Source: Candidatus Manganitrophus morganii (GTDB lineage: Bacteria > Nitrospirota > Nitrospiria > SBBL01 > Manganitrophaceae). Taken from it: a stretch of DNA of 64,000 nucleotides. Shown in pieces: positions 33,001 through 60,800 of this stretch. Numbering within the stretch: the first letter of the stretch is position 1; each line of letters begins with the position of its first letter. A model generated the notes under the pieces. It did no database searches. It saw only the letters and a list, made by a program, of their open reading frames with translations, and was not told where the DNA came from. The position numbers and the translations under genes are program-made. The stretch spans positions 1 to 64,000 of the forward strand of contig JAJHOH010000001.1 in NCBI GenBank assembly GCA_021651055.1, written 5' to 3'.

Positions 33001-33335
33001 GGGATTATCTCCTTGCAGAGTGTTTAATAAGTCTATCCGATGGGATTGCAATTGGGGGGCCGGTTATGTGGGGAAATAATGGCGAGAATACGGAGAACAC
33101 TAGACTCGTAAAATCAGTTACTTGGGAAAAATAATTAAACCTATTAAATAAATAAAAATGCACGGGTGCGAAACCGGATTCGCAGTGGAAGGATTCGAAC
33201 GAGGAGTTTGGTTCGCGGTGAATACCAGGGGTGAAGGATGGGGCTCATGGTGTCTGAAGAGATTTTTTGGAAGTGTCCCAGGAAGGCGTTTATTTAAGGC
33301 CGTCTATCCTCTTGTGCTTCTTGCGGTTTATCCTC
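33001..33335. other. Gene-free stretch between the LplT-Aas-like gene and the sigma54 regulator gene
   Basis: I see no gene or clear signal here. A T-loop-like string (GTTCGAATCC on the minus strand near 33190) lacks a cloverleaf. Confidence 0.5.
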
Positions 33336-34709: not shown

Positions 34710-34711
34710 CC

Positions 34712-36025: not shown

Positions 36026-36085
36026 CTTGTACGCTCCGTCCCGCCTGCTATGAGTAAATTATCCGCCCTTGGCACGCGCTTTAGT

Positions 36086-37088
36086 CTAATGGAAAGCCCC
36101 CTCTTTGGCAAGATGTTCACCCCTCTTCTTTAGAAGAATAAGACCGGCGGCCCGCTCGAAGACTGACTCCGGAAAACCGAGAGCCCGCTTGATCAGCAGA
36201 TCCCGATCGATCGGGCTGGGGATCGCTGCGATCCGTCGCGCCTCTTTTATCGCCAGCCGGTGGACAAAAGGCCAGGGAGAGACCGGAAGCGGATAGTCGC
36301 TTCCGTGAAGAAGCTTGGCGTGCAGCTCGGGACGATCCAGAAACGTGAGCAGATAGCGGCTCCGCGGCGGAAGCGTCAGCGCGGAGGTGTCGGTGTAGAA
36401 ATGCGGGTACTTTAAGAGCATCTCAACGAAGCGCTTAATCCGAACCCCGGAAGCCAGCCCCATCCTCCCCCATGGGCGGCAATGACGGTGACCCCCTCTT
36501 CGAGAGCAAGCAGGAGGCGCGAGGGATGACCCAACGATTGATCGAGCGGCTTGAGGGCAAATTCCGGTCCCGTATGACAGAGGAGCGGGATTTGATGCTC
36601 CAGGAGCTTTTTGAAGAAGGGGATGTTCTTCCGATCCATCGGATCAAAACCTTGCGTGTTCGGAAGCCATTTAATTAAAACCGCTCCTTCCTCGACCACC
36701 CGGTCGAGCTCCTCCAGCGCGTCTTTTCGGTAAGGGTGGATCGACGCGGCCGGCAGAAGCCGCGGGTGCTCCCGGGCCAATGCCAAAACATAATTATTCG
36801 GGATGTAAAAATGGGTCTGATCTTCCAGCCGCTCGCCATTTCGGTCGAAGACCGCATCATGGGCCAGGATGACGAGCTGATCGACATGTTTCGTCTGCTC
36901 GATCATCGCAAGCCACTGCGTCTGTAAAACGGCCTCCGCTTGCTCGGCCGGATCTGTTGCCCGAATCCCGTTTTTCCAGCGAAGATAGCGGCCGACGAGA
37001 CGACGCTCTGAGACCTTTGAGAGGGTGCATCCGGTCCGGGCTGGATCCAACGAGAAAACATGCGTGTGGATGTCGATAATCCTTCCAT
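36086..37088 (-). pseudogene. Amidohydrolase (Amidohydro_2 family), broken by two frameshifts
   Basis: The reading frames join into a TIM-barrel metal hydrolase. The DIHTHVFSLDPARTG metal motif at the N-terminus is in a different frame from the best start ATG (37086-37088), which follows AAGAGGAG. The middle part runs to VTVIAAHGGG at about 36465. The C-terminal part, from GLASGVRIKRFVEMLLKYPHFYTDTSAL to the stop at 36086, is in another frame. One inserted base near 37080 and one near 36460 would restore a single frame. Such enzymes hydrolyse or decarboxylate cyclic substrates. Possible assembly errors cannot be excluded. Confidence 0.8.
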
Positions 37089-37116
37089 CGAATGCTCCTC
37101 TTTCTTCTATGGATCT

Positions 37117-37902
37117 TTAGGGTTCATTCTTATTTTCCTGATCTGCCTCACACGGGATCTCACCACGATGATCGAATTGTCCCGAGGAGAGAAATGCCAC
37201 GACTTGGTCCGCCGTCTCTTGCTCCAGAAGAAGGGCGGTGTGCTGACGTCGGATCACAAAGAAATCGGCAGCTCCCTCCAACCGGGCGCTTTGTAGCGAG
37301 ACCGATCCGTCGTCGTCTCCGGGAAGATCCCGGCTAAGCCCTTTTCCATCGCAGAGCCCACCGGCAATAATGCCGAATGGGACCGACGGGATGCCGATTT
37401 CAGCATAAAACGGGCGATTGCTTGCAAGGAGCTGGGTCATTGCCTTACTGCCGTAGAGCCAGCGAAACCATGAGTAAGGATAAAGCACGTCGGCGAGCTC
37501 CGATCCGTGGTTCGGCGGGGCGATCATCACAAAGCGGCCGGCATTCTCGGGTGGATCATGGGAGAGATAGTAGCGGATGATGATGCTTCCCAAGCTAAAC
37601 CCCACAAAATGAACCTTCGACGAAGAATCCAGCTTCCGAACCTGTTCGGCCAGATCAGCCGCCGCCTCTTCGATCATTTTTTCACGACTGGGATAGTCGA
37701 TATTCATCACGGTGTATCCGGCGCGCTCCAGCGTCCATTCAATCTTCTTCATCATCACCGGATGGCCGAGAATGCCATGAAGCAGAATCACTGTTTCGCC
37801 CCGATCGGGCATTGAAGCGGCGGCCGCAGGAGTTAAGCTCATGGATAGAAGCAATGCCAGCAGAATCATGAGGATTTTCTTCCTGACCTCCGAATGGTTC
37901 AT
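37117..37902 (-). CDS. Exported lipase-like alpha/beta hydrolase
   Basis: This 261-residue hydrolase has a signal peptide (residues 1-30, ILMILLALLLSMSLTPAAAA). The oxyanion HG is in ETVILLHGILGH, the nucleophile Ser in HFVGFSLGSIIIRYYL, Asp in LPGDDDGSVSL, and His in VIRRQHTALL. This resembles PGAP1/LipA-type hydrolases that act on lipids. The start ATG overlaps the TGA of the upstream FPLY-repeat gene (ATGA), so translation is coupled and the two proteins are likely made in equal amounts. Its substrate is unknown. Confidence 0.88.
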   Translation of the reverse strand: MNHSEVRKKILMILLALLLSMSLTPAAAASMPDRGETVILLHGILGHPVMMKKIEWTLERAGYTVMNIDYPSREKMIEEAAADLAEQVRKLDSSSKVHFVGFSLGSIIIRYYLSHDPPENAGRFVMIAPPNHGSELADVLYPYSWFRWLYGSKAMTQLLASNRPFYAEIGIPSVPFGIIAGGLCDGKGLSRDLPGDDDGSVSLQSARLEGAADFFVIRRQHTALLLEQETADQVVAFLSSGQFDHRGEIPCEADQENKNEP

Positions 37903-40900
37903 AGCGTCAGATCTCCTTCCTCTTTTGTCCGGGTGTCGTCTGCACCGCCGAAGAACCAAAGCCATCGCATTTTTCGTGCTCCTTCATCCGAGCGCTCCAC
38001 ACCGACCAAGCCTCCGAGGAAGGTCCACTCCACACCCTTTCCCCTCTCCTTTTCATAAGAATAGAGCGGGAGAATCGGATTGAATTCAAAGGTGGAGCGC
38101 TCGGGGGAAACCGACCTACTGACCACCGCCATAGCGGAGCCGCCGAGGAGATGCCACTCTTGGGTCTCCTCGTCCGATCGCTCATAATTGACCAGCCACC
38201 AAAGCACGCTGGCCTCCGTTGTATGTCCCTCGCGGTTTTTGTAGGTAACGAGCGGCCAGAGCAACGAGAGTTCCCCTTCATCTCTAATTCGATTGTAGCT
38301 GTAGCGATATAGAGGAAAGAAGCGATCCGAGAGCTCCTCATTCGTCTGCACCCGTTGATAGAGTGAGAAAGGTGCCACTCCGATCACACCGACCCGGCGC
38401 ACCCCGGTCTTGTGATCACGTTCATCACTGTAGAATGGGAAAACGCGCTGCCATCTCCCGTCCGGATTGGAGCGGTATCTGGAAAGAAGGGTCGTGAAGC
38501 GACGCTCTTTCTTCTCAAGATCATGTTGGTATAGATAGAAGGGAAGGAAGCGATCGGTGAGCTCCTTCTCTGAGTCGGAGTGCTCATACAGTGCCAGTGC
38601 GGGGCCGCTGCCGATGGGAGGCAGTCCGAGGGCTGAGAGCCGCCATGCGCCATCGGTCCGATCTTCACGATAACCATAGAGCGGGAAGAGCCGGTCATCG
38701 ACCTCTCTTGCGGTGGATCGATGGGAGTAAAGGGTTAGCGAGGAGACTCCGAGCAGGCCAAAAGATCGGCTTCCGGCCACGGCATCGCTCCGATAATCAT
38801 AAAGGGGAAAGAGCCGATCGCGCGTCAGCGATGCCGTTTGCTCATGACGGTACAAAGAGAGATCTCTTAATCCGACGAAAGAGACGGCAAACCGGTCTTC
38901 CCGCCGCTCATAGTCATAGAGGGGAAAGAAGCGATCCTCCACCGAAGCTGGACTCGATTTGTGGGCATAAAGGGAGAGTGGAGGGACACCGATCATCCCA
39001 AACGACCAGCCCCCATTTCCCTTCTCCTGTTCATAACCATAGAGTGGGAAAAGGCGGTCGGTTGTCTTCTCTTTTGATCCAGTATGTCGATACAGAGAGA
39101 GTTCCGAAAAGCCAACGATGGAGAGGGCGGATTTCCCCGCTACTCGTTCATAGCTGTAGAGAGGGAAGAGACCATCATAGAGCGCTTTCGGAGTGGCACG
39201 ATGCGTATAGATAAGCAGCGCATTGAGAAAGGTCTCCTCCCCTTCCAGCCGGCTGCGAGAGTAGTAGAGAGGGAAAAACCGATGCGTCAGCGCAGTGCCG
39301 TCATTGATATATCGAAACAGCGAAAGGGGGCCATACCCGATAACAGAAAGATCTGTCTTTGTTCCCTCTCGGGTCAGGTTCCCCAGCGGAAAGAGAAAAT
39401 CGTCGGTCCGCTGCGGGGTCTCATGATGTTGATAGAAAAGAAGCAGGTTGAAGTCGATCTCATCGCGTTTAAGGTTGTGAGCATAGCGGTAGAGGGGAAA
39501 GAACCGATCGACTACCTCCCCCTCCGACGTGCGATGCTCATACAGAGAGAGGGAGGTATCCCCGATAGGAGGAAGTCCTAAGAGCGTGATCCGCCTCTCC
39601 TCAGGACGTTTACGATATCCATAGAGCGGAAAGAGATGACCTGTGCTCTCGGCAGGTGTGCTTCGGCTCTCAAAGAGCATCAAGGGGGGGACGCCTAACA
39701 ATCCCATCCTTCTTTCCTGCCGAAGGATATCGTGCTCATAAGAATGAAACGGCAGGAGGGCATCCTTTGTAAATGTTTCGCTCTGCCGATGCTGATAGAC
39801 AAAGAGGGCATCCCATTGCCGCTCCCCGTTCACAAGATGATGTCGATAGCGATAGAGCGGGAAAAGGCGATCTTCGATTAGAGAGGGAGACTCCGCGTGT
39901 TCATAAAGGGAGAGGGTCCAGTCATTGCCGGTCGGAGGGAATCCCAAAAGAGAGAAGCGGACGCTTTTTCCCGATCTACGATATCCGTAGAGTGGGAAAA
40001 GCCGATCCGATGTCGCCGAGGGGCTCGTCTGATGCCGATAGAGTAAGAGGCCATCGATTTCGGTCTTGTCTTTTAAGAGATCGCGATGATAAGCATAGAG
40101 CGGAAAGAGACGATGTCGGACTTGACTGGGGGTGATCTCCTGCCGGTAGAGTGCGAGTTCAGATACTCCCAAAAGGGAAAGCGCGCGTTGCGCTCCAACC
40201 GATTCGTAGTCATAAAGGGGGAAGAAGCGGTCTCGGGTGCCATCCGCTCGTTGTTGGTGCCGGTAGAACGCCAGCGGACCCACTCCCAACAAGGAGAAGT
40301 CGATCCCCTCTTTCTGCTCTTTGTACGAGTAGAGGGGAAAGAGACGGTCCGTCATCCCCAAGGCGGTCCGCTCATGCCGATAGAGGGACAGCGGACCATA
40401 GCCGATGAGTCCCAATTGATTTGCGTCTGATCTTGAGTCACTCTCCTTGTTATACAAAGGGAAGAGGTGACTCTTTACTTCTTGTGGAGTCCTCTGATAC
40501 CAGAAGAGGGAGAGTTCTTGATAACCGACAAGAGAAAGATGGGTGTTCTGCTGTGACTGCTCGTATCGATAGAGGGGGAAGAGCCGGTCAAGAACACCTC
40601 CTGGAGAGGATTGATGCCGATAAAGGAAAAGGGCATCGATCTCGGTTCGATCTTCATTAAACCATCGGGCATACCGATAGATCGGGAAAAAGCGATCGGT
40701 TGTCCGATCGGAAGCCGAGACATGCTCATAGAGGGCTAATGTCGGCAGCGGCCGAAGCGCTCGGATCGGCGGCAGACCCAACAAGGAGAGCCGGCGCTCC
40801 GAGGCCTTTTTATCCTCCTCGGAACCGTAAAGCGGGAATAAAAAGCTGTGAGAAAAGGCCGGACTCTCCCATGCGCCATAGATCGGAAGCAGATATCGAT

Positions 40901-41522
40901 AAGCCTGCCCCGACGTATGATCATACTCTGAAAAATAGAGGGGGAGGACTCGGGTGGCGCTCCCTTCCCGATCGCTCCGGTGGCTGACCAGGGGAAAAAG
41001 AAAATCCCACTGCCGTCGCTCCCGCTCAAGGTCTTGGGTATAGATAAAGAGCGGCCCCAGAACAAAGTAGCGATCGTATGACTCTCCCCGCGCATGATGG
41101 CCATAGAGCGGGAAGAGATGAAAATAGCTATTCTCATCTTTGAGATAATTGAAGTAGAGAGGGAAAAAGAGTGTGAACCGCTCGCGCGGGTGCTCCTCAT
41201 GCCAGTAGAGCGGGAAAACATGAAACCAAATATCATTCCCCTTCTTTTCATAGGTCCCCAGCGGCCATAGAATACTCCGTCGAACATAATCCGCTTTCAG
41301 ATCGATCTCATGAGAGTAGAAGGGACGGACCGAAAGGCGGGAGAACCCCTCTCTTTGCTCTGAAGAGTACAGATATAGGGCATCACGCGAAACCGAGCCG
41401 TCCTTCTCTTCAGTGCACCAAATCAACCCGAAGCAAGTCCGCTTGCCGGATGTTTCGCGCGCTTCGGCGCGAACGGACGGTAAAGATAAAAGCAACAGCA
41501 GAAATATTCCCCATCGTTTCAT
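37899..41522 (-). CDS. Giant secreted 'FPLY' repeat protein, unknown family
   Basis: This is a 1207-residue protein with a signal peptide (MKRWGIFLLLLLSLPSVRA). The rest is an array of about 30 imperfect units with the pattern DRLFPLYRY...LSLLGVPPLSLYRH, about 36-47 residues each from residue 230 on. The N-terminal units (residues about 90-230) are shorter, 17-20 residues. FPLY occurs exactly about 20 times, with variants FPIY, LPFY and LPLY. Long units containing LGLPPI...LALYEH are each followed by a unit without the LLG strand (four cases). The alternation of short hydrophobic/aromatic strands suggests a beta-rich outer-membrane or surface structure. Related tracts exist in other bacteria but I know no named domain. 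It is first in the lipase/two-component operon. Confidence 0.85.
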   Translation of the reverse strand: MKRWGIFLLLLLSLPSVRAEARETSGKRTCFGLIWCTEEKDGSVSRDALYLYSSEQREGFSRLSVRPFYSHEIDLKADYVRRSILWPLGTYEKKGNDIWFHVFPLYWHEEHPRERFTLFFPLYFNYLKDENSYFHLFPLYGHHARGESYDRYFVLGPLFIYTQDLERERRQWDFLFPLVSHRSDREGSATRVLPLYFSEYDHTSGQAYRYLLPIYGAWESPAFSHSFLFPLYGSEEDKKASERRLSLLGLPPIRALRPLPTLALYEHVSASDRTTDRFFPIYRYARWFNEDRTEIDALFLYRHQSSPGGVLDRLFPLYRYEQSQQNTHLSLVGYQELSLFWYQRTPQEVKSHLFPLYNKESDSRSDANQLGLIGYGPLSLYRHERTALGMTDRLFPLYSYKEQKEGIDFSLLGVGPLAFYRHQQRADGTRDRFFPLYDYESVGAQRALSLLGVSELALYRQEITPSQVRHRLFPLYAYHRDLLKDKTEIDGLLLYRHQTSPSATSDRLFPLYGYRRSGKSVRFSLLGFPPTGNDWTLSLYEHAESPSLIEDRLFPLYRYRHHLVNGERQWDALFVYQHRQSETFTKDALLPFHSYEHDILRQERRMGLLGVPPLMLFESRSTPAESTGHLFPLYGYRKRPEERRITLLGLPPIGDTSLSLYEHRTSEGEVVDRFFPLYRYAHNLKRDEIDFNLLLFYQHHETPQRTDDFLFPLGNLTREGTKTDLSVIGYGPLSLFRYINDGTALTHRFFPLYYSRSRLEGEETFLNALLIYTHRATPKALYDGLFPLYSYERVAGKSALSIVGFSELSLYRHTGSKEKTTDRLFPLYGYEQEKGNGGWSFGMIGVPPLSLYAHKSSPASVEDRFFPLYDYERREDRFAVSFVGLRDLSLYRHEQTASLTRDRLFPLYDYRSDAVAGSRSFGLLGVSSLTLYSHRSTAREVDDRLFPLYGYREDRTDGAWRLSALGLPPIGSGPALALYEHSDSEKELTDRFLPFYLYQHDLEKKERRFTTLLSRYRSNPDGRWQRVFPFYSDERDHKTGVRRVGVIGVAPFSLYQRVQTNEELSDRFFPLYRYSYNRIRDEGELSLLWPLVTYKNREGHTTEASVLWWLVNYERSDEETQEWHLLGGSAMAVVSRSVSPERSTFEFNPILPLYSYEKERGKGVEWTFLGGLVGVERSDEGARKMRWLWFFGGADDTRTKEEGDLTL

Positions 41523-42003
41523 CTTACACTCCGTTACAGGATCAATCCAACTTCAAGCCAGGTATCCGGTCTCTGTTCATGCTATCAAAGCATATAAGCA
41601 ATCGGCGTGCCTTTCGCAGTCATGTGACGCTCCTCTTTTTTCCCTATCATAAAACAGATCCAAAGCTCTTGCCATAAATTAAACAGAGGCTTTGTTGCGA
41701 ACCTTGCTTCGCACCGTGAAGATAGGCTGCCACCTAAACTTCGCACCCGATCGCCATGTCTGTAACCGCATCCGATACACCGTACCTCAATACAACACTC
41801 TTTCAAGCTTTCCACACACCATTCGATCGTCTCTATTCCTCAGCGTTATCCGATATTTTCACTGCTTTCTGTTTTTCACATCCTGATATGGAATCAGAAA
41901 AGGCCTCGCTGTTGCAATCACACCCTTCGTGGTCGAGTTCCAAGTGCTAATACAAAACGTGGATATCCATCATTGATGGTAACCAATCACAAAGGAGACT
42001 GCG
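41523..42003. other. 481-bp intergenic region upstream of two diverging genes
   Basis: The FPLY gene starts leftward at 41522 and the di-iron gene starts rightward at 42004, so promoters for both are expected here. I see no convincing promoter pair. A stretch near 41690 (AGAGGCTTTGTTGCGAACC) faintly recalls transposon ends but has no partner. No gene is supported. Confidence 0.4.
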
Positions 42004-42828
42004 ATGAATTTTCGAAAAACGGATTGGCAGGCGGAAGGAATTGAATATCATAACATTCAAAAAGAGAAGGTCTTAGACAATAATATTCTGTTCTACAGCG
42101 TCGTAGGCTCCTCCTTTTTGGAAAGCACGGTCGGCTTCATTACTCAAAACCTGATTACTTTCTACCGAGACGATGAAGAGGTCCGCTCATGGCTTCATAT
42201 GATCTGGGATCCTGAGGAGATGAATCATGGCCGAGCAATGAAGTATTACGTCCAGTCGGTCTGGCCGGACTATGACTGGGAGGCCGCGTATGCTTCTTTC
42301 TATGAGGAATACTCGAGATTCTGCCAGTTGGAGTTGCTTCGACCGACGAAGGCGTTAGAAATGCTGGCACGATGCATGACCGAAACGGAAGCCGCGATGT
42401 ACTACAGGGCGGCGAGTGCTTATTGCCCCGAGCCGATCCTCAAAGATCTCCTCATGAAGATGTATCGGGACGAGGTAAAACATTACAAGCATTTCCTCCA
42501 GTACTTTAAACGCTTCAATATGACGGAGCGAAACGGTCTCTGGAGGCTTTCTAAAACGATGTTGAAAAGAAACACGATTGTTGCCGAAGAGGATATCGAT
42601 ATCACCTTCCGCCACATTCATGTCGGCTGGAAGAAGACTACCCCCTTTGAGCCTCTCTCCTCGGACACTCTCGGGAAGGCGATGACGGCAATCTCAAAAG
42701 AGTACTTCCCCTATGACGTGGCCAGACGGATGCTTTTCAAGCCGCTTGAGACCGAGTCCAGATGGAGAAATTTGATCGTCAAAGGCTTGGAGTTTCATGT
42801 GACTCGCCGCATTCCGGGATTTGCATGA
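42004..42828 (+). CDS. Di-iron ferritin-like protein (acyl-ACP desaturase type)
   Basis: This 274-residue soluble helical protein carries the two halves of a carboxylate-bridged di-iron site: Glu40 in LESTVGF, Glu72/His75 in EEMNHGRAMKYY, Glu129 in CMTETEAAMYYRA, and Glu157/His160 in RDEVKHYKHF. The order and spacing (E...ExxH twice) match the fatty-acid desaturase type 2 (acyl-ACP desaturase) and related ferritin-like enzymes. It could insert a double bond in acyl-ACP or act as a hydroxylase. AAGGAGAC lies before the ATG. No electron-donor gene is adjacent. Confidence 0.8.
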   Translation: MNFRKTDWQAEGIEYHNIQKEKVLDNNILFYSVVGSSFLESTVGFITQNLITFYRDDEEVRSWLHMIWDPEEMNHGRAMKYYVQSVWPDYDWEAAYASFYEEYSRFCQLELLRPTKALEMLARCMTETEAAMYYRAASAYCPEPILKDLLMKMYRDEVKHYKHFLQYFKRFNMTERNGLWRLSKTMLKRNTIVAEEDIDITFRHIHVGWKKTTPFEPLSSDTLGKAMTAISKEYFPYDVARRMLFKPLETESRWRNLIVKGLEFHVTRRIPGFA

Positions 42829-42845
42829 TGGGCAGCGACCAGATT

Positions 42846-43472
42846 TTATTCTTTCATCTGTCCCAGCTGCTTGTCATGAAGGCGGCCAAGGGTCAGTTGG
42901 GCGGTCAGCGAGCCGATCAGGGCAAGGAACATATCCCATTGGGTATCCCAGACATCCCCCTGAGTACCCAAAAAAGCATCGGCCGCTTCTCCGCCGGCGA
43001 TCGCCGCCCACCATTCGATGAACTCATAAGAGGCGCTGATCGCAAGACAGACGCAGGCGACAAGAAAGAAGAGCATTTTTCCGGGGTAGAGGGGGGAGTT
43101 CCGAAGAAGAACTTCCCGTGCAATGATCGCCGGAACAAACCCTTGTGCGAAGTGCCCGATGCGATCGTAATGGTTCCGCGCAAAATCGAAGAGATCCTGT
43201 ATCCAGAAGCCAAGTGGGACACGTGCGTAGGTGTAATGTCCCCCTAACATCAGAATCAGCGCATGGATGGTGATCAATCGGTAGGCAAGAGGGGTTAGCG
43301 GAAACCGGTCGTAGGTGAGAATTAGAATGGGGAGGCCAATGAGGACCGGAAACACCTCCATCCACCAGGTCGGCCGATCATATGGATCAATACCGGATAG
43401 AATCAGGCCAAGAAGGACAATGGCGATCATGATGCGCCGCTCTTTTTTGCCCTTTGTTTCGCTTCTTGCCAT
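42846..43472 (-). CDS. YjdF-like inner-membrane protein (DUF2238)
   Basis: This 208-residue protein has five or six hydrophobic segments (for example RIMIAIVLLGLILSGI and LITIHALILMLGGHYTY). The conserved DUF2238 motifs are present: RNHYDRIGHFAQGFVPAII, SYEFIEWW and GTQGDVWDTQWDMFLALIGS. The conserved polar residues within helices suggest a membrane transport or enzymatic role, but the family's function is unknown. It converges with the di-iron gene and ends 17 bp from it. Confidence 0.87.
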   Translation of the reverse strand: MARSETKGKKERRIMIAIVLLGLILSGIDPYDRPTWWMEVFPVLIGLPILILTYDRFPLTPLAYRLITIHALILMLGGHYTYARVPLGFWIQDLFDFARNHYDRIGHFAQGFVPAIIAREVLLRNSPLYPGKMLFFLVACVCLAISASYEFIEWWAAIAGGEAADAFLGTQGDVWDTQWDMFLALIGSLTAQLTLGRLHDKQLGQMKE

Positions 43473-43499
43473 GAACTTCCTAGCTTGATTTGAATCAAC

Positions 43500-43532
43500 G
43501 ATCGGTGGAAGCCGACACTCACTCCACCGATC
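43500..43532. promoter_or_regulatory. Inverted repeat, operator- or terminator-like
   Basis: GATCGGTGGA (43500-43509) pairs perfectly with TCCACCGATC (43523-43532) around a 13-base loop. It sits upstream of both the YjdF-like gene (leftward) and the DUF2339 gene (rightward), so a regulator site is possible. No T-run follows. Confidence 0.5.
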
Positions 43533-43754
43533 ATACCATGATTATCGCAATAATAAAGACGCGTTTTTTAGGATCTGACATGTGTTAAAGAGAAAATCTC
43601 TAAGACATAACTCCGCAAAGGGATTATACTAGAACAAGTCCTGGCCGGCAACAAGCGGAATAATAATTCGTCAACAACGCTCAGGTCCAGGAACAATTAT
43701 GATTTGTATCGGCAAAGGAATAAAGATGAATGCAATAAACAGTGAGGTGATCCC

Positions 43755-46715
43755 ATGTTAATGTTCTTAACGGTTGTTGGGATCGTCGTACTGATTATCC
43801 GTCAAATCATCGACTCGCAGAAAATCTCCTCGTTGGAAGATGAAATTCAGAAGCTGTGGCGATCGATTCAGCGGCTGCAGCAGAAGACGCCTGAAGATGC
43901 CGTCTCCCCCATTCCCGCTCCCGCCCAAGAGAAGCCGACTCCACCGCCCCAATTTCCTGTCACGCCCTCTTCCCCATATTCAGAGAGAATGGAACCACGA
44001 ACCGACTCCACTTCGCCGCCTCCCGTGCGACCGCCGATCCCTTCGCCAGCGCCGTCCCGGGCCGCCGCTCCCGAAAGTAAGATCCCCGCGATGGCATCGA
44101 TCGATTGGGAAAGGTTTACAGGGGTGAACCTCTTCTCCTGGATCGGGGGATTCGCTCTTTTCCTGGGAACGGTTTTCTTTGTGAAATATTCGATCGATCA
44201 TGGGCTCCTCAGTCCCTGAGTCCGAATCCTGCTCGGCTTGACGCTGGGGACCGGGACAATCGTCGGCGCCTTTTGGATGAGGACGAAAGGGTATGCAATC
44301 ACCGTCCACACGCTCGCGGCTGCCGGCATCGGCATTCTCTATGCCGACATCTTTGCGGCCCATGCCCTGTATCACTTCATCGAAGCATCACTCGCTTTTC
44401 CCTTCATGAGCCTGGTGACGGTTCTTGCCTTTCTACTCGCAGTTCGGCTCGATACCCGGTATGTCGCGATCCTCGGTATGGTGGGCGGCTTCCTGACCCC
44501 TCCCCTCCTCTCCACAGGAGAGGATCGTCCGTTCGGGCTCTTTGCCTACGTTGCGCTTCTTGACATGGGACTTACCGCCGTGGCGATTCGAAAACGTTGG
44601 GGGTTCCTTGTCGCAATGGGTGCAGTCGGAACGGTCCTGATGCAGATAGGCTGGGTAGAGCGGTTCTTTGACCCTTCCAAGGTCGAGATCGCGATGGCGA
44701 TTCTTCTCTTCTTTTCATTCTTCTTCATTGGAATCGATCTGGTGGCTAGGCGACGCGACGCGGAGGATCAATGGATCTTTAAGCCAGCGGCCATACTGCC
44801 ACTGATCTCAATGCTCTATACCGGCTACTTTATGGGCTATCCGGCGCTTGCCGCTCGTCCGTGGCTACTTTTTACTTTCCTTTTCCTGCTTGACGCGGGA
44901 ATCGCCGGTTTAGCACTCTATAGGGATGATTTCCGCAAGGTGCAGTTGGCGGCAGGTGCAATCAGTTTCCTCTTCCTTTCGGTCTGGACAGCCGGTTTTC
45001 TGACACAGGATCTTCTCCCCTGGGCTCTTTTCTTTTATCTTCTTTTCGCAGCCCTTCATGCAGCGCTACCGGTGGCACTCCAGAAGGTCCGGCCGTCCAC
45101 TTCCCCTTGGATCTGGAGTTATCTCTATCCGGTACTGATGCTGATCCCAATCATGATATCCATCTCTAAAGCAATCATTTCTCCCTTCTGGATTTGGCCG
45201 ATCGTTTTCCTCATTGATCTTATTGCAATTGTCGTCGCGATTCTCGGAGGGGTACTCTGGGTCCTCTTTAGTGTGGTCATTGCCACGTTCATCCTCTCAG
45301 CGCTCTGGCTAACGCAGTTAACCGACACCACAGCGCTTTCCGGTCTGCTCTTCGTCGTCGTGCTTTTCTCCGTCGGTTTCTATCTACTCGGCATCTACAT
45401 CATGCGTCGGCAGAAGAAGTCTTTTGTATCTGCCTCGGTTGGGCTAAAACCGGAGTGGCCGATGGATGCGAATACTCTCTCGCACCTCCCCGCGCTCTCG
45501 GCGATTCTCCCTTATTCACTTCTGATAATGGCCTGTTTGCATCTTCCCCTAGAGAGCCCGGGGACCCTCTTCGGAATGGGACTTCTCTTCGCGATGCTCC
45601 TCTTCGGCTTGGTCGTGTACTATCGAGCGGAGATGCTCTCCATGGTTGCCATGGGCTGCGGACTTCTGCTGCAATATACTTGGCACTTCAGCCGGTATGA
45701 TCCGGTCAATCATCCGTTGGTTCCGCTTCCTTGGTATCTGATCTATTTCACGCTCTTTGCCATTTTCCCCTTTTTCTTCCAAAAGCGAATGCGCGATCTG
45801 CTGCTTCCCTGGGTGGCTGCGGCCTGCGTGGGTCCCGGCTCTTTTTATCTGGTCTATCAGGCCATTGTTTCCTCTTTCGGAGATGCCGTGATCGGTCTCC
45901 TCCCCGCGCTCTATGCCGTGATTTATCTTGCAGGCTTGTACGACATCCGCCGCGACATTCCAAAAGAATCACCCCACTACCTGACCCAGCTGGCCCTCTT
46001 CGGCGGGATTTCTCTTTTTTTCATCAGTTTGATCTTCCCGCTGCAGTTTGAGAAAGAGTGGTTGACGCTGGGGTGGGCGCTGGAGGGGATCGCATTGGTT
46101 TGGCTTTATCGAAGAATCCCGCACGAGGGACTTAAAATCTGGGGAGGCGCACTGCTTCTCATCGTTTTTGTACGGCTGGCGATGAACCCCGCTGTGCTGG
46201 ATTATCACCCCCGAGCCGCGCTCCCGATCTTGAATTGGTATCTCTATACCTATGGTGTCGCAACGATATGTTTATTATTGGCGGCGCGGCTCTGGCGACC
46301 CGCAAATGAAGGGGTGATGGGAAAACCGATTGCACCCACACTCGCTGGACTGGGGGTGATCTTAGCCTTCCTATTACTGAACATCGAGATTGCCGATTTC
46401 TTCAGCACGGGGTCGACGCTAACCTTTCAATTCTCCGGAAGCTTTGCGCTTGACCTCACCTATACGCTCGGCTGGGCCATTTTCGGCCTTACCTTGCTTA
46501 GCATCGGGATTCGGGTAAATCAACGCGGGGCGCGACTCGGCGGGGTGGGACTCCTCGCGGTCACCATCGGGAAACTCTTTCTACATGATCTCTGGCGCTT
46601 AGGTCAGCTCTACCGGGTGGGGGCTTTTCTGGGGTTGGCTGCCGTTTTGATCCTCGCCTCTTTCCTCTATCAGCGCTATCTGCAACAACAGAACAAGCCG
46701 GAGGCTCGCTCGTGA
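43755..46715 (+). pseudogene. DUF2339 polytopic membrane protein interrupted by an in-frame TGA
   Basis: The 986-codon frame encodes an N-terminal helix, a coiled and proline-rich linker (residues 30-115) and then about 25 hydrophobic segments typical of DUF2339. At 44217-44219 the frame has TGA (DHGLLSP-stop-VRILLGLTLGTG), where family members probably have Trp (TGG). The 825 codons after it are intact and uninterrupted. The stop therefore looks recent, recoded or a sequence error. If real, only a 154-residue fragment is made, unless translation restarts (TTG 44238). The gene is followed by DUF3999 with a GTGA overlap. Confidence 0.8.
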
Positions 46716-48688
46716 GGTATTTTGTCATCACTCTTTTTTTGCTTTTCACCGCGCAGCCCTCCATCTCGGCTGAAATCCCATCCGCATGGCCTCTTCATCA
46801 AGAGATCGATGTTGAGAAACCGGGACTCATACGGCACCCCCTCCCTTATGAGACCATCGATCAGGCCCACGCCACGCTACGGGACCTTCGTCTCTTTGAC
46901 ACACACGGCAAGGAGCAGGCCTATCTTTTGGAATATCCTGTTCGGGAAAATCAGCAGACGACTCCTGCGAAGCAGTTGGAAATCACTGTCCAGAAGGATC
47001 GTACCCTTTTGGCAGTTATCACCGGATCAACCGATCCGATCGAAGCGGTTGTACTCGAAACACCCGCATCTGAATTTCTGAAAGCCGTCACGGTGGAGGG
47101 ATCAAAAGATCAAAAACAATGGAGGCCCCTTGCAATCAACAGGCCGGTCTTTCGTCAGCCAAATGGTGCAGCGCAGTTAAAAATTGACTTTGGTTCGATA
47201 CCATTTCCTTACCTTCGAATTATCCTTGATGATGATCGTACCCCACCCATCCCGATCACCGGTGTCCGGATCCAGAAAACTGCCGCGGCGCCTCCCGCCA
47301 CGGATCCGATCGACCTCAATTTGATCGAACGGATCGATGCGGCTGGTGAGACATATCTAAGGATCGCGCTTCCTTCTCGAAACGTCACCCTCTCAGAAAT
47401 CGAGCTAATAACGGAAGAGGCCCTCTTCACTCGGCCCGCCCGGCTGACTCTCAGCAAATATATGAATGGTGAAATTCAGGAAGAGCGTCTCGCGGAGGGA
47501 ACCTTTTATCGGATTGCTCCGGAGGGGAAAATTATTCACGCTAACGAGCGGCTATCGGTCGGTAAAATTGTACAAACTAGGGAGCTGACGTTAGTCATCT
47601 CGAATGGAGATGCTCCCCCGCTTCGAATCAAAAAGATTCGGGCACATCTTCTTCCGGTTTACCTTATCTTCCATGCTCAAAACGCAGGGAGCTACCACCT
47701 TGCCTTCGGACATCTGGAAGCAAGAGCGCCGCGGTATGATCTCTCAAGCATGCGAGAGACGATCACTCGGACGGATGCTGTTTCGGCCCGCATCGGACCG
47801 ATCCAATCGAACCCCACCTTTATTCGGCCTGAGCCGCTCCCGATGCTCCCGGATCGAGCGGGCCCGATTGATTTGACCCCCTATCGATACCGGGCACGTC
47901 TTCGACCCTCTGCTGATGGAATCCAGGAGTTAGAACCAGGACTGCATGTCTTGTCGCAGACCGCTCCTTCTGGATCGGATTGGCGCATTGTTGCGGGAGG
48001 AAATCAGGTTCCTTACGTCATTGAACGGAGAGGACCATTGAGGAGTTTTTCCCCTTCTGTCATACATCTTGGTTCCGACCCGAAAAAACGGATTGACCGC
48101 TGGGAGTTATTGCTTCCATATTCTAACCTCCCGCTGACTTCTCTGAGTTGTACGGTGATAGAGCAGCTCTTCGAGAGATCGGTACAATTGTATGAAGAAA
48201 GGGAGGACGAACGAGGAGCGATTTCCCGCCGGCTGTTGGGACGCGGCCTTTGGCGGAGGATACCCGAGCAGGAATCAGCCCAGCTCTTTATTTCAATCCA
48301 AGAGAGACCACAAACTACAAAGCTTATTTTAGAGGTCGACGACGGAGATAATTCTCCGCTTCGGCTCGAAACGTTTCAAATCCATTATCAGGCACCCCGT
48401 TTACTCTTCAAAGGATCCATCAATGAATCGCTTTGGTTTTATTATGGAAATCCAAAGACGACTCCTCCGAAATATGACATTTCGCTAATTGCCGATGCGC
48501 TTCTCTCTGCTGAAAGATCTTCAGCCACTCTGGACCAAGAAGAATCTCTGAAGACCGGCCCCTCTCGGATTTTCTTACGCCTAACGGGACCGGGCCGTCT
48601 GATCCTGTGGGCTTCCCTAGGAATCTCCACCGCTGTATTGCTTTTCATCATAAACAAACTACTTCCTCCGACATTTGAAGAGAAATAA
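46712..48688 (+). CDS. DUF3999 exported membrane-anchored protein
   Basis: This 658-residue protein has a signal peptide (VRYFVITLFLLFTAQPSISA), a long beta-rich periplasmic part with repeated discoidin-like stretches (DGDAPPLRIKKIRAHLLPVY, DDGDNSPLRLETFQIHYQAP), and a single C-terminal membrane helix (LILWASLGISTAVLLFI). DUF3999 genes are regularly found beside DUF2339 genes, so the two products likely form a complex in the envelope; the role is unknown. The GTG start overlaps the upstream stop as GTGA, which indicates translational coupling even though the upstream gene carries an in-frame stop. Confidence 0.85.
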   Translation: MRYFVITLFLLFTAQPSISAEIPSAWPLHQEIDVEKPGLIRHPLPYETIDQAHATLRDLRLFDTHGKEQAYLLEYPVRENQQTTPAKQLEITVQKDRTLLAVITGSTDPIEAVVLETPASEFLKAVTVEGSKDQKQWRPLAINRPVFRQPNGAAQLKIDFGSIPFPYLRIILDDDRTPPIPITGVRIQKTAAAPPATDPIDLNLIERIDAAGETYLRIALPSRNVTLSEIELITEEALFTRPARLTLSKYMNGEIQEERLAEGTFYRIAPEGKIIHANERLSVGKIVQTRELTLVISNGDAPPLRIKKIRAHLLPVYLIFHAQNAGSYHLAFGHLEARAPRYDLSSMRETITRTDAVSARIGPIQSNPTFIRPEPLPMLPDRAGPIDLTPYRYRARLRPSADGIQELEPGLHVLSQTAPSGSDWRIVAGGNQVPYVIERRGPLRSFSPSVIHLGSDPKKRIDRWELLLPYSNLPLTSLSCTVIEQLFERSVQLYEEREDERGAISRRLLGRGLWRRIPEQESAQLFISIQERPQTTKLILEVDDGDNSPLRLETFQIHYQAPRLLFKGSINESLWFYYGNPKTTPPKYDISLIADALLSAERSSATLDQEESLKTGPSRIFLRLTGPGRLILWASLGISTAVLLFIINKLLPPTFEEK

Positions 48689-48756
48689 TATAGAGCTTCT
48701 ATATCTCTGGCCAATCTTCGCGAGATAAAAACCAATTTTTACAGGACGAATAAGTT

Positions 48757-48812
48757 CTTCCTGAAACAAGTGAGGGGCGAGATCCATCCTGTATTGGATA
48801 TTTCAAATGGAA
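48757..48812. repeat. Island intergenic repeat, copy 1
   Basis: Shared pattern with 54934-54988: CTTCCTGAAAC, then GCGAG or TCGAG, then ATTGGATATTTCAA.TGGAA. It lies between the DUF3999 and TPR genes. Confidence 0.7.
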
Positions 48813-48941
48813 TTCCTTTCTCAAGGAAAACGCATACCGATATGACTATTTTCTGTTTAGTTTCTCCGCAATTTTCGATATAATCATATCTGACTTCCCG
48901 TAAAACACATAGAACTCCGCTTTAACCAATCGAGCAATCCG

Positions 48942-51812
48942 ATGAAGCGTATTGGAGCAGGCGCACTGGCCGGTTGTTTGGGAGTACTCTTACTTGCCGG
49001 ACTGCTTTGCGCTGAGACCATTCCGAATACGCTTTTTCAAGAAGCATCATCTCTTATCAATTCCGCTCAAAAGATCGAACAGGAGAATTTTTCCGAGGCA
49101 TACCGATTTTACAAGGCAGCCAATGAGAAAATCGAGGAACTCCTCGCAAAACACCCTACCTCCAAGATCGCCTCTCAGTTGATACAGGGGCAGCTTCGGA
49201 TCGGAATTTATTCGTATGACGAGTTGAAAGAAAAAGTTCTCCCCCACGCAAAAAGAAAAGCCGACGCGGAGACTGATCCGATTGAAGCCATCCTTTTATT
49301 GATCGAACGCAAAGCAGATGAAGCCTACCTCCAATACGCTCTAAAGCGGATTATCCGGATCTACAAAAGGCGAGGACAAATGGATAAGGCCCAAGAGATT
49401 GCGCTCACCAGAACGAGCTTGGTCGACAGACCTGGATTTTTGATGGCGCTGGCATTTGATTTTGTCGAGCAGGGCAAAAAGAAAGAAGCATTTGATCTAC
49501 TTGAGAAGGCCATCATTTCACCATCCCGTCCACTAAAAGAGCAATGGGAACGTGAACGATGGGGTTCCACGCTGACAAGGGTCGCGTGGGCATATATCCG
49601 TCTTAAAGAACCCGATCGGGCGAAGGCGTTGCTGGATCAAGCGTCTTCACTGGTTGATTCGCCCTCACTGCTCTCTCAGGTTGCAGCAGGGTATGCCAAT
49701 GTCGGAGAGAGCGAGAAAGCGGAGGCGGCATTTGCCAAAGTGAAAGGAGTAAAAAACATAAACGCCGCTATTGAAGTCGGGGGCAGTCTCGCTCATGCGG
49801 GACGATACGAGGAGGCCCGCAAAATGATCAAGGAAATCGATATTCCCTCCTATCGAATCCACTTTTGGGTTTCGCTCTTCGGTATTGCCACAACCCGCGG
49901 AGAGGAAACGATGGCATCTAGATTTCTCAATGAAGCTTTGGCTGAAGCTCGCCGTGGAGACCGCTCTAAGGATGCAGATGATACAGCGCGAACATGGCTT
50001 CATTTGGCTCGAGCTGCAAGAGAGGTCGGTGAGTTAAATCGGGCGCTTCACTTTTTAAAGCGAGCGGAGCAGTCAATCGATGCTGTCGTGGGAAATCCCT
50101 CTTCACAACGGCAGCTCCTGATTGAATTGGCAGAGGAATATTGGAAATCCGGTAATCCACGACCGATTGACGGCCTTCTTGATCGGGCAAATATAAAGAG
50201 CTCTATCCAGAGCGGAGGATCTAATATAACCCTCGCCGAACTCTATGCCCGCCTTGGAAAGGTCGAACAGGCGCTTCTGATTACTCAGGATTTCAATGGG
50301 GGTGTCGGACAGATCGGTGCGATGATCCAAATCGCAGCAGTCCTCTGGGAGACGGGAAACCGCAGCCAGGCGTTAGCGATCTTAGCGAAAGCGGAGTCAG
50401 ACCTTCAGAAAGCAGATCAAGATGGATTAGAGCGTCACCATGAGTTGGTTCGCCTTGCTTCTCAATACGCCGCCTTCGGCGAAGAGAGCATTGCGGTTAG
50501 AATCTTGAGGGATGCAGAGAAATTGGTTCCGACTCGGGGTAGTACTTTCGGGACGAGTTTTGCTCTCATCGATGTTGCGCAGGGTTATCTCGGAATTCAT
50601 CGTCCGGAGGACGCAGAGCGGATTCTCTCAAAAGCGATAGAGGTAACAAAACAAGCTGTGAGACAATCGGATCGACCTGAAAGGTACGCATATATTGCCT
50701 CCGTTTATACGGAGGGGGGAATGTTTCAGCGTGCTTGGGAAGTAGCCGAGCTGATTGAAGGAAATGAGGCGGAGAAGGCCGACGCCTGGCTTCAGATTGC
50801 AACAAAGCAGCTTGCCGCAAAGCAGACGGCACAGGGGCGGGAGCGTTTATTGAGCGCGATCGCACTTCTCGATAAAAAAGGAATTGGAGAGGATAGTCGG
50901 TTCCACGCCCAAATTGCAGCGGCCTGGATGGCCGCCGGAGAAATCGATAAGGCACTTCGTGCAATTGATTCGCTGGATCGAGTAGTCGGGAAAATAGCAA
51001 CATTGTACCGGCATCTGAGGTCTTATTCGACACAAGATACGCTGCCCTGGCCGGAGGATTCAATCGTAAAGGTAAAATCACGTTTGAAAGAATGGGAGCA
51101 TCAAGCAGTATCCGGAGAGGACTGGGCGAAATTAGCCGCGATTTGGGCGAAAGTCGGAGACCGAAACGAGGTGACCGAAATTTTCTCCCGGGCGGAAAGT
51201 GCAACTTTAAAGGACGTTTCCAAGAGCCGAAACGATTTCGATTCCCTCCGTAACATCGTATTCAACTTAGTCGAATTGGGTTTTCCGGAAAAGGCGGCAT
51301 CGATCGCGGACGAAATTCGAGATCCTTCGCAAAGAATTATTTGCTTATCTATTGTGATATGGACTCTGATAGACCAGAAGAAAACCGATAAAGCCCAATC
51401 TTTACTATCCAAAATGGAAGAGGCCGCCAAAGAAGTCACCGATCCATCTAAGCGATCGAGCGCCCTCTTACTCGTTGCTCGCCATCGGATCGAATTAGGA
51501 GAGCGTGAGGAAGGGTTAAATTTACTAAATCAGTTGGTTGCTTCATCGCATCCGCCAAGGGAGTCTGGAGATGAGATTACGGCTGCCTCAAGCTATCTCA
51601 AGGCCAGAGAGCGCGACAAAGGGATGGATCTATTAGAGCTTGCCTTGCAAAGGGTTCAAGACGAACAACCTGGCTGGGGAAAAGTAATCGACCTTGGGGA
51701 GAGGACCTTTCCCCTCGCTGAAGTAGGCGAGGTCGACGGAAGGGGCCAGCGATTTCTGCACAAAATCTTACAACACGCAGAGGAGATTCCGGTGTACGGG
51801 CCCTCTCGATAA
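48942..51812 (+). CDS. Large exported TPR-like helical-repeat protein
   Basis: This 956-residue protein has a signal peptide (GALAGCLGVLLLAGLLCAET). The rest is helix-turn-helix repeats of about 30-40 residues with patterns such as AGRYEEARKMIKEIDIP, KAEAAFAKVKG, GNRSQALAILAKAESDL and WMAAGEIDKALRAIDSL. They resemble TPR or related alpha-alpha superhelices that serve as protein-binding scaffolds. The protein would lie in the periplasm or outside. It is similar in style to the protein at 58881-60398 (AGDVESALKTAGSI). No catalytic motif is visible and the function is unknown. The downstream HEAT lipoprotein gene follows on the same strand. Confidence 0.82.
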   Translation: MKRIGAGALAGCLGVLLLAGLLCAETIPNTLFQEASSLINSAQKIEQENFSEAYRFYKAANEKIEELLAKHPTSKIASQLIQGQLRIGIYSYDELKEKVLPHAKRKADAETDPIEAILLLIERKADEAYLQYALKRIIRIYKRRGQMDKAQEIALTRTSLVDRPGFLMALAFDFVEQGKKKEAFDLLEKAIISPSRPLKEQWERERWGSTLTRVAWAYIRLKEPDRAKALLDQASSLVDSPSLLSQVAAGYANVGESEKAEAAFAKVKGVKNINAAIEVGGSLAHAGRYEEARKMIKEIDIPSYRIHFWVSLFGIATTRGEETMASRFLNEALAEARRGDRSKDADDTARTWLHLARAAREVGELNRALHFLKRAEQSIDAVVGNPSSQRQLLIELAEEYWKSGNPRPIDGLLDRANIKSSIQSGGSNITLAELYARLGKVEQALLITQDFNGGVGQIGAMIQIAAVLWETGNRSQALAILAKAESDLQKADQDGLERHHELVRLASQYAAFGEESIAVRILRDAEKLVPTRGSTFGTSFALIDVAQGYLGIHRPEDAERILSKAIEVTKQAVRQSDRPERYAYIASVYTEGGMFQRAWEVAELIEGNEAEKADAWLQIATKQLAAKQTAQGRERLLSAIALLDKKGIGEDSRFHAQIAAAWMAAGEIDKALRAIDSLDRVVGKIATLYRHLRSYSTQDTLPWPEDSIVKVKSRLKEWEHQAVSGEDWAKLAAIWAKVGDRNEVTEIFSRAESATLKDVSKSRNDFDSLRNIVFNLVELGFPEKAASIADEIRDPSQRIICLSIVIWTLIDQKKTDKAQSLLSKMEEAAKEVTDPSKRSSALLLVARHRIELGEREEGLNLLNQLVASSHPPRESGDEITAASSYLKARERDKGMDLLELALQRVQDEQPGWGKVIDLGERTFPLAEVGEVDGRGQRFLHKILQHAEEIPVYGPSR

Positions 51813-51945
51813 CGGCTGTTAGATTGACGGTTATCCTGATATGGGTTGCCCCTTCGATGTCTGCCCAAGAGGGTTTTACGATGCGCTGATGCGAGCAGAG
51901 GCGAAATACGATTGGGTTCAGAACACAATTGATGGAATTGATTCA

Positions 51946-53742
51946 ATGAAACGAATACCCCTGTTGGTCCTAACGTCTATCGTGTTCTTCTCATGTGTAC
52001 AAGGGAAAGAGGGCATGAGTTTAGATGGTAAAAATTTTAATCCGAGTGCACCGCATTTGCAAAGACAACGGGCTTACGCGCGCCAGCGCGCCTATCTTGA
52101 ATTATTTAATCGCATGGATTCTCGGATGTTTGAAGCCATTCTCCAAGCCCTACGCGACCCGGATCCATACGTCCGTTACACCGGCGCTTGGGCTTTGAAC
52201 CCAAGCCATATGGACGCTCATTCGGAAATGGGGCCTGAGTTAGATTATAAGGAATGGGTGTTTCCGCTTTCTCCTGAAATATCAAAAGAAATCGTGACGT
52301 CACTGATGGAAGCGTTGCCGGAGACCGATGTGTGGGCGCGAAGGGAGATGCTTATTTCCTTATCAAACCTTCAAAGCTATCAAGTAACGCAGAAGGTTCC
52401 GCTCGATGAAAAGGCTAAACGGCATTTTCTAGATTACATCAAAGATCCCGACCCCATTACTCAGGCCATTTCGGTTAAAGGGCTTCATCTGTGGGCAAAA
52501 GATCCCAGAGTAGAAGAGGTCCTCCGACAGGCTTTATCCGACAAGGCTTGGGATGTTCGATCAGAGGCGTTGCGTTACTTTAAATCCGATTTTCAGGTTT
52601 TGGCTGAAGCTCTAAAAGACAGTGATCCTGGAATCAGGGTTCAAGCGGTCAGGGGACTTTCTTGGCACCATCGAGATAATCCGATGACGATGGACCTGCT
52701 CATTACACAATTGGGTGATATCGACTTTAATGTTATAGAAACCATCTTAATGTCAATCAAAGATCCAAGAGCAGTGAAACCGATCTTGGCGTTGCCGGAG
52801 AATAGATACCCAAATCAACCCGGAGCGATTGAACTCATCACAGGGAAGCCCTTTCAACAGGTAAAAGCAGAATATCAAAACGAGATGAAGGACTTTCATC
52901 TTCCACCGGCCCCTATCCATAAGGGTGATCCCCGCCCTCTCCTTAACCAGCTAAAGGAAGGGGACCGCTTTGAGCGAATTACAGCCGTGCACAACTCCCA
53001 TCGGAGAGGATTTCGGGAAAAAATTCCAGCATTACTTGAGGGGATCCATGGGGATGATCCGCTTGTCAGATATCATTTTATTTCAGAATTGGAGCTTTAT
53101 CTCAGATATTTTATTATTCCCGATGAGAAAGAAGAACCGATTTATAAAAGTTTAGTCAAAGCAACGAAGGACCCAAATCCCCATGTCCGTAGGGAGGCAA
53201 TAAGAATGATCGGCCCTTTTGCGCGCTCTGACGTATACAATACACGCGCGATTGAACTGATCAATCAACTCATTGAAGGAGAGTCCGATCCCTTTCTAAG
53301 ACATGCCAGCATTTCACTGATGGATCAGTATGTCTATAAACCAGGGAATTCAGGGGGACGCTCTGTACCTGTAAAGGACGTGAATCTCATTTATTCAAAA
53401 TTGTTGAACGACGATTTTTCTGAAACGCGCAGGATTGTAGTGGCGAAAATTAATTTAAGCTGTTATCCGGAGGCGGTCGATGCGATGTTGGACGCCTTAA
53501 AAGATCCATTTTCGGACACGCGCAAGAATGCTGCGAATAATCTTAAATTGGGCCTCCTGATTCATCAAATAGATCATACGAAGGTTCAATCCGCCCTAAA
53601 GAAGATCTCTGAAGAGGACCCTTCACGACAGGTCCGGTATTTTGCGGACGCATCCTTCAAGCAGAACCAGCGCTTTCTGGAAGGAAAGGCATCTATTAAT
53701 GATGTGCTAAGCAGTAAGGGCTGCCGCAATGATGAGAAGTAA
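51946..53742 (+). CDS. HEAT-repeat lipoprotein
   Basis: This 598-residue protein has a lipoprotein signal (LLVLTSIVFFSC, lipidation at Cys17). HEAT/PBS-lyase-type repeats follow, with motifs like ALRDPDPYVRYTGAWAL, ALSDKAWDVRSEALRYF, ALKDSDPGIRVQAVRGLSWH, ATKDPNPHVRREAIRMIGPFA and ALKDPFSDTRKNAANNLKLG. These form a curved scaffold for protein contacts. I start at ATG 51946 for the signal peptide; a frame starting 105 bp earlier lacks a sensible leader. The last 14 bases overlap the cytochrome gene, so the two products are probably partners at the membrane. Confidence 0.83.
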   Translation: MKRIPLLVLTSIVFFSCVQGKEGMSLDGKNFNPSAPHLQRQRAYARQRAYLELFNRMDSRMFEAILQALRDPDPYVRYTGAWALNPSHMDAHSEMGPELDYKEWVFPLSPEISKEIVTSLMEALPETDVWARREMLISLSNLQSYQVTQKVPLDEKAKRHFLDYIKDPDPITQAISVKGLHLWAKDPRVEEVLRQALSDKAWDVRSEALRYFKSDFQVLAEALKDSDPGIRVQAVRGLSWHHRDNPMTMDLLITQLGDIDFNVIETILMSIKDPRAVKPILALPENRYPNQPGAIELITGKPFQQVKAEYQNEMKDFHLPPAPIHKGDPRPLLNQLKEGDRFERITAVHNSHRRGFREKIPALLEGIHGDDPLVRYHFISELELYLRYFIIPDEKEEPIYKSLVKATKDPNPHVRREAIRMIGPFARSDVYNTRAIELINQLIEGESDPFLRHASISLMDQYVYKPGNSGGRSVPVKDVNLIYSKLLNDDFSETRRIVVAKINLSCYPEAVDAMLDALKDPFSDTRKNAANNLKLGLLIHQIDHTKVQSALKKISEEDPSRQVRYFADASFKQNQRFLEGKASINDVLSSKGCRNDEK

Positions 53743-54892: not shown

Positions 54893-54933
54893 GGGAACGT
54901 ACTAAACTTCTAATTATTTATCCATCGAGAATA

Positions 54934-54988
54934 CTTCCTGAAACGAATGCACATCGAGCTCTATCCGCATTGGATATTTCAATTGGAA
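54934..54988. repeat. Island intergenic repeat, copy 2
   Basis: This matches copy 1 at 48757-48812 in CTTCCTGAAAC, GAGCTC/GAGATC and ATTGGATATTTCAATTGGAA. It lies just after the cytochrome gene. Shorter pieces of the start (CTTCCTGAA) recur near 56208 and 58634. Confidence 0.7.
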
Positions 54989-54991
54989 GTC

Positions 54992-56113: not shown

Positions 56114-56369
56114 GAAGATTACTCTATGATAAATATCGGAGTTATTCCAGAAGCACATATAGTTATATAAAACGAATAGGACAAGAAATGCAAGTCAATC
56201 GAAGCGGACTGCTTCCTGAAGTCCTCGATCCTTACTTCCTGTATACCTGAGCAGACTACAAACGGCAATTCTCAATTGGGCGTCAAATTTTCACCAAATA
56301 AACTGCTGAAATATAAAAACAATATTGGTATAATATTTCTCACGTTCGGCCAACATAAGAGGACGAAAT

Positions 56370-57761: not shown

Positions 57762-57847
57762 TATTCCCTCCGGGGTAGTGGAAATCTCGCCATCAGGCCA
57801 AGTGGCCTATTCACGAGTGAGCTTATGGATTCTTTGAGTAACAGCAG

Positions 57848-58599: not shown

Positions 58600-58615
58600 T
58601 GGAATTATCCTAAAG

Positions 58616-60792: not shown

Positions 60793-60800
60793 TTATCAAA

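What the first reader, a model, noticed from the sequence alone, without database searches (positions are those of the whole stretch)
44217..44219. Single in-frame TGA where Trp is expected in DUF2339
The frame continues for 825 codons after TGA with normal DUF2339 sequence. Single-codon interruption can be a recent nonsense mutation, a sequencing error or a readthrough. The intact downstream DUF3999 with a GTGA overlap argues for some selection on the pair.
Basis: partly seen in the sequence, partly recalled or inferred. Interest (0 to 1): 0.55.

Follow-up and report, generated by a model that had tools for sequence, protein, structure and literature searches.

The report
Broken defence gene on acquired island
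A large membrane-protein gene, of a family known to protect bacteria from lipid-cutting toxins of rival bacteria, is cut by one stop codon; it sits on an acquired stretch of DNA, and the stop is most likely an ordinary recent inactivating mutation (or one wrong base in the assembly), not a new way of reading the code.

Summary
The TGA at 44217-44219 is real in this sequence and is the only stop in a 986-codon DUF2339 (PF10101) frame. "Trp expected" fails: 0 of 37 distinct relatives aligned across the site have Trp. TGA is an ordinary stop here: it ends this same frame and 108 of 291 long ORFs; RF2 is present; none of 44 tRNAs has a UCA anticodon; tRNA-Trp is canonical; no tRNA-Sec or SelB; no special fold after the TGA. 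So no recoding. In 1.484 Mb of the genome I found one other internal single stop, also TGA, in a Cache/GGDEF gene whose five aligned relatives have TGG. The finding missed the setting: DUF2339-DUF3999 is the pair known as arc3A-arc3B (defence against a phospholipase toxin); it lies with an LplT-Aas lysophospholipid-repair fusion on a 33.9-kb island between direct repeats of a tRNA-Ala end, and a sister genome has the empty site. Best reading: an acquired arc3A-like gene with a recent nonsense mutation (0.55); a consensus error is the main rival (0.25); low-level readthrough is possible (0.12). Ordinary; interest low.

The parts
43755..46715 (+). DUF2339 (arc3A-like) gene, 986 codons before the final stop, interrupted once
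44217..44219 (+). the single in-frame TGA (context CCC TGA GTC), codon 155, between hydrophobic segments
43755..44219 (+). 154-aa product if the TGA terminates: N-terminal hydrophobic segment, Pro-rich linker, one more segment
44220..46715 (+). 831 open codons after the TGA, rest of DUF2339, no further stop before the end, genome-like codon usage
46712..48688 (+). DUF3999 (PF13163, arc3B-like) gene, intact, overlaps the end of DUF2339 by GTGA
29596..33051 (-). MFS (LplT-like) + acyltransferase + AMP-binding fusion, NF006386 acyl-[ACP]--phospholipid O-acyltransferase above cut-off, same island
26835..26910 (+). tRNA-Ala (GGC), the attachment gene of the island
26864..26980 (+). left direct repeat: 3' part of tRNA-Ala and the terminator after it
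60743..60860 (+). right direct repeat (first 57 nt 96% identical to the left copy)
26981..60742 (.). island absent from sister genome G005, whose two flanks meet at one repeat copy

Best explanation
The locus is a horizontally acquired arc3A-arc3B-like pair (DUF2339-DUF3999) on a tRNA-Ala genomic island. Its arc3A-like gene has taken one recent nonsense mutation. RF2 ends translation at codon 155, leaving a 154-aa fragment with the first two of about 24 hydrophobic segments, so the Arc3A-type function is lost or nearly lost, while the intact DUF3999 gene behind it may still be made. Shown: the stop, the frame, the family, the island and its empty site, the standard code. Inferred: that the base is right, that the gene is off, and that the function is the one reported for Arc3A in Pseudomonas.
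For: One TGA in an otherwise intact frame with domain homology on both sides and relatives with a sense codon there. TGA is a normal stop: it ends this frame and 108 of 291 long ORFs in 684 kb; RF2 present, 526 bits over a cut-off of 370; no UCA anticodon in 44 of 44 tRNAs; tRNA-Trp has CCA, a 5-bp anticodon stem and, by my own numbering, G24 and A9. No DUF2339 match in 5 of 5 other genomes of the genus (two of them 72% and 86% complete) and an empty site in one: a dispensable cargo gene. The assembly looks clean where I could check: in two three-way alignments (7,951 columns) G000 has 1 private deletion and 0 insertions, against 4 and 2 in G001 and 7 and 6 in G005.
Against: No reads, so a wrong base cannot be excluded. 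Nothing else has decayed: no further stop in the other 985 codons, where about 0.97 stops per 1% of neutral change are expected, so the loss, if real, is younger than about 3% neutral divergence (95%, my arithmetic), or the gene is still used.
Confidence: 0.55

Rival explanations
1. Consensus error: the organism has a sense codon there and the gene is intact.
For: Single substitution in an otherwise undamaged gene. A second lone TGA in this genome (G000:C1:3451306-3451944, dCache) stands where 5 of 5 relatives that align, two of them 97.8-99% identical in DNA, have TGG. Both TGAs read TGANTC; 5.2% of all TGA are so followed, which would fit a context-dependent miscall but was noticed after the fact. 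Modification-linked nanopore errors are described (PMC10687267, passages); whether this genome was read so is unknown to me.
Against: G000 has the fewest private indels and substitutions of three relatives in 7,951 columns, and of its 55 private substitutions 3 lie in or by GANTC sites in the G000 reading, two of them at one place, with no excess apparent.
Confidence: 0.25
2. Tolerated or useful readthrough: near-cognate tRNA-Trp(CCA) reads the UGA at low rate and a little full-length protein is made.
For: The site accepts many residues (8 different ones in 37 relatives), so an inserted Trp may be harmless; the codon before the stop is Pro, and C-terminal Pro can slow termination in E. coli (PMC7246954, passages citing Hayes 2002); the frame behind is undamaged.
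Against: No relative has a stop at this site; tRNA-Trp is canonical, unlike the 4-bp-stem, G24A or A9C forms linked to UGA reading (PMC13092985, abstract and passages); the 60 nt from the TGA fold no better than shuffles (z +1.12).
Confidence: 0.12
3. Split gene: translation restarts after the TGA and two pieces work together.
For: A TTG at 44238 and an ATG at 44277 are in frame.
Against: I see no Shine-Dalgarno-like run before either (by eye); DUF2339 residues between the TGA and these starts would be lost; G025, which looks split near the same place, has its pieces at two contig ends.
Confidence: 0.05
4. Recoding: selenocysteine, or UGA as Trp genome-wide.
For: None beyond the TGA itself.
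Against: No SelB above cut-off (best 204 of 242.25 bits, in a 396-aa EF-Tu-sized frame); the only RF01852 match above cut-off is tRNA-Arg(TCT) by ARAGORN; RF2 present; TGA common as stop; no UCA anticodon; relatives have neither Cys nor Trp there.
Confidence: 0.01

Closest known systems
Arc3A-Arc3B of Pseudomonas aeruginosa (PA5114-PA5113; eLife 2022, PMC8926400)
   Same: Same Pfam families by the paper's own criterion (PF10101 next to PF13163), many membrane segments, and an Aas/LplT gene in the same island; the paper says aas genes neighbour arc3 genes in many bacteria (passages).
   Different: Arc3A-like gene interrupted by TGA; 24 hydrophobic segments by a simple scan against 35 reported; the aas-like gene is about 11 kb away on the other strand; function untested here.
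Single-stop pseudogenes of acquired islands
   Same: One nonsense codon, no other decay, cargo gene absent from close relatives.
   Different: Not shown by reads to be real.
Intact DUF2339-DUF3999 pairs of Elusimicrobia GWA2_56_46 (L105), AM-2014 bin-1840 (L104) and an Opitutaceae MAG (L103)
   Same: About 40-42% identity over most or all of the length and the same gene order.
   Different: No stop; Met, Met and Glu at the site.
4-bp-stem tRNA-Trp(CCA) UGA decoding (PMC13092985)
   Same: tRNA-Trp with CCA is the only Trp tRNA.
   Different: Here the anticodon stem has 5 pairs.

Membership tests
DUF2339 / Arc3A family (PF10101) | Profile match over the curated cut-off | tested here: met
   282.7 bits against 33.6, across the TGA
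DUF2339 / Arc3A family (PF10101) | Neighbouring PF13163 (Arc3B) gene | tested here: met
   75.1 bits against 30
DUF2339 / Arc3A family (PF10101) | Protection against Tle3-type phospholipase | not testable with these tools
   needs a competition assay
DUF2339 / Arc3A family (PF10101) | Uninterrupted reading frame (needed for a working member) | tested here: not met
   TGA at codon 155
LplT-Aas fusion (NF006386) | Equivalog cut-off | tested here: met
   1392.6 against 1221 bits
Selenoprotein | tRNA-Sec and SelB in the genome | tested here: not met
Selenoprotein | Stem-loop just after the UGA | tested here: not met
   z +1.12, (60 nt, one fold only)
UGA = Trp code (tables 4/25-like) | UGA-reading tRNA, RF2 lost, TGA rare as stop | tested here: not met
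tRNA-integrated genomic island | Direct repeats of the tRNA end and an empty site in a relative | tested here: met
tRNA-integrated genomic island | Integrase gene (usual, not obligatory) | tested here: not met
   no recombinase domain in the island ORFs given to Pfam; small ORFs not tested
Pseudogene | Disrupting change present in the organism's DNA | not testable with these tools
   no reads

The most novel reading that the evidence does not exclude
The UGA is a leaky switch: on an acquired defence island, arc3A is kept with a stop after Ser-Pro so that only a little of a costly 24-segment membrane protein is made, more of it when termination is slow (stress, low RF2), tying toxin defence to translation state.
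Probability: 0.05. Interest if true: 0.55.

Novelty: new member of a known kind. Interest (0 to 1): 0.2.

Why it matters
It indicates that this genome uses the standard code and that the stop is not a recoding site. The useful part is the setting: an arc3A-arc3B-like pair travelling with an LplT-Aas repair gene on a tRNA-Ala island in a Nitrospirota bacterium, a case of phospholipid-damage defence as mobile cargo, with one gene apparently lost.

Tried and rejected
Codon log-odds scan for internal stops (37 hits of 36,366 stops): did not flag the DUF2339 site itself, so not used for rates. Same-frame ORF scan: 95 candidates in 1.484 Mb (45 + 50), judged by eye; two are internal (window 44217; L149:1425); a third, L189:19382, is a gene boundary with AGGAGG and TTG behind it. 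The control of 294,292 bases of G003 gave 22 candidates and none that I took for internal by eye. A looser scan gave 696, not worked through. Premature stops between G000 and G001 (78,215 aligned bases): most events lie in the 5' leaders of stop-to-stop ORFs or in wrong-frame ORFs, so inconclusive and not counted. GANTC as an error motif: noticed, no excess apparent. Relatives in viral contigs: none; first scan of genome contigs: none. Plasmid records: 18 with a weak DUF2339 match, best 52% of the query, not used. PDB by sequence: none for DUF2339. PADLOC: nothing for the pair. No structure was predicted: the fold would not tell the explanations apart.

Full report
What is there. The window is the start of a 4,287,287-base single-contig genome. 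An ATG at 43755 opens a frame that meets TGA at 44217-44219 and stays open for 831 codons more, to the TGA at 46713-46715; DUF3999 starts with GTG at 46712. DUF2339 matches on both sides of the stop and across it. By Kyte-Doolittle the read-through protein has 24 hydrophobic segments, 2 of them before the stop.

Is Trp expected? No. Relatives came from 295 genomes of the phylum (19 with a match, the own genome included) and from genome contigs (25 loci). Of these, 17 distinct Nitrospirota loci and 24 of 25 genome-contig loci align across the site; four are shared, which leaves 37. None has Trp, Cys or a stop. The residue is free to vary: Ala, Glu, Val, Thr, Met, Ser, Ile, Gln. The ancestral codon of this gene therefore stays unknown. 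The closest relatives, two Elusimicrobia and one Opitutaceae MAG, are only 40-42% identical.

Is the code standard? Yes, as far as tested. TGA ends 108 of 291 long ORFs in 684 kb. RF2 is present. Rfam's tRNA model finds 44 tRNAs and ARAGORN reads the anticodon of all 44: none is UCA. The Trp tRNA has CCA and a full 5-bp anticodon stem; positions 9 and 24, read by my own numbering, are the normal A and G. There is no SelB above cut-off and the one tRNA-Sec match above cut-off is tRNA-Arg. The RNA from the TGA on is not unusually folded.

Is it one of many? In 1.484 Mb, about 35% of the genome, a scan for adjacent same-frame ORFs gave 95 candidates and by eye two internal stops, both TGA. The second interrupts a dCache domain in a Cache-PAS-GGDEF-EAL gene; 5 of 5 aligned relatives have TGG there, including two at 97.8-99% DNA identity. 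So lone TGAs are rare here, and one of them is a private change. The scan misses stops with short open stretches on one side and was read by eye. Both TGAs are followed by NTC; 5.2% of TGAs are. This is a chance of about 0.003 for two, but it was noticed after the fact, and the 55 private substitutions of G000 in 7,951 aligned columns show no such excess.

Is the gene decayed? Not otherwise. About 0.97 further stops are expected per 1% of neutral change in this frame and none is seen; codon usage after the stop (index 0.637) is like that before it (0.612) and above DUF3999 (0.572). A loss must be recent, or it is not a loss.

Setting. The window flanks 24001-26981 and 60743-63999 are contiguous in G005 and share there one copy of a repeat that G000 has twice: the 3' part of tRNA-Ala(GGC) with its terminator, at 26864-26980 and 60743-60860. 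The 33.9 kb between are an island. G001 has the same tRNA junction with other DNA behind it, a further copy of the tRNA end about 14 kb on, and pieces 88-95% identical to 56212-58644 and 60495-60806 on other contigs, so the tRNA looks like a repeated target. None of 5 other genus genomes has a DUF2339 match (two of them are 72% and 86% complete). No integrase domain was found among the island ORFs scanned. That the phylum is Nitrospirota follows from same-phylum contigs of the same lengths as named records.

Function. In Pseudomonas aeruginosa the PF10101-PF13163 pair is Arc3A-Arc3B; Arc3A is needed against the phospholipase effector Tle3 and limits lysophospholipid build-up, and aas genes often neighbour arc3 (PMC8926400, passages only). 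The island here carries, besides the pair, an LplT-Aas fusion above its equivalog cut-off; one other DUF2339 locus, the Nitrospirota MAG locus L109, has an aas-like gene within the fetched flank (1 of 25 loci, flanks up to 4 kb). This makes a phospholipid-damage cargo likely. It is inference: the aas-like gene is about 11 kb from the pair, and function was not tested.

Verdict. A real stop in this sequence, in an acquired arc3A-like gene; most likely a recent nonsense mutation, with a wrong consensus base as main rival. Recoding is excluded as far as these searches reach. My searches of the paper library found no paper with 'DUF3999' and ten with 'DUF2339'; one of the ten was opened (passages only).

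Noticed in passing
window 26864-60860: Genomic island of 33.9 kb at tRNA-Ala(GGC) with direct repeats; empty site in G005, other DNA at the same tRNA in G001; no integrase domain found in the ORFs scanned.
   Followed up: partly
G000:C1:3451306-3451944 (L149, L212): Second lone TGA in this genome, inside a dCache domain of a Cache-PAS-GGDEF-EAL gene; 5 of 5 aligned relatives have TGG there.
   Followed up: yes
L012/L031 (G241:C162): DUF2339 gene of another Nitrospirota genome has a single in-frame TAG after codon 375, followed by 281 open codons of normal homology.
   Followed up: partly
window 48757-48821 and 54934-54997: A 64-nt repeat (77% identical) inside the island, with an 82% copy in G001:C9:29734-29798; nature unknown.
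   Followed up: no
window 36086-37050: Amidohydrolase match covers only profile 61-181 of 289 on a 212-aa ORF overlapping a 125-aa ORF in another frame; perhaps a frameshifted gene.
   Followed up: no
window 37899-41522: 1207-aa ORF whose DNA holds at least ten copies of a degenerate 34-nt repeat with spacings that are multiples of 3; no Pfam match at E 1e-5.
   Followed up: no
G000 sample, 1.484 Mb: GAGTC/GACTC (704 and 778) is about a third as frequent as GAATC/GATTC (2446 and 2339), also in G003.
   Followed up: no
G000 whole genome: Among 44 tRNAs none reads as Ile(GAT) or Ala(TGC), which often lie in rRNA operons (recalled); they may be missing or unmatched.
   Followed up: no
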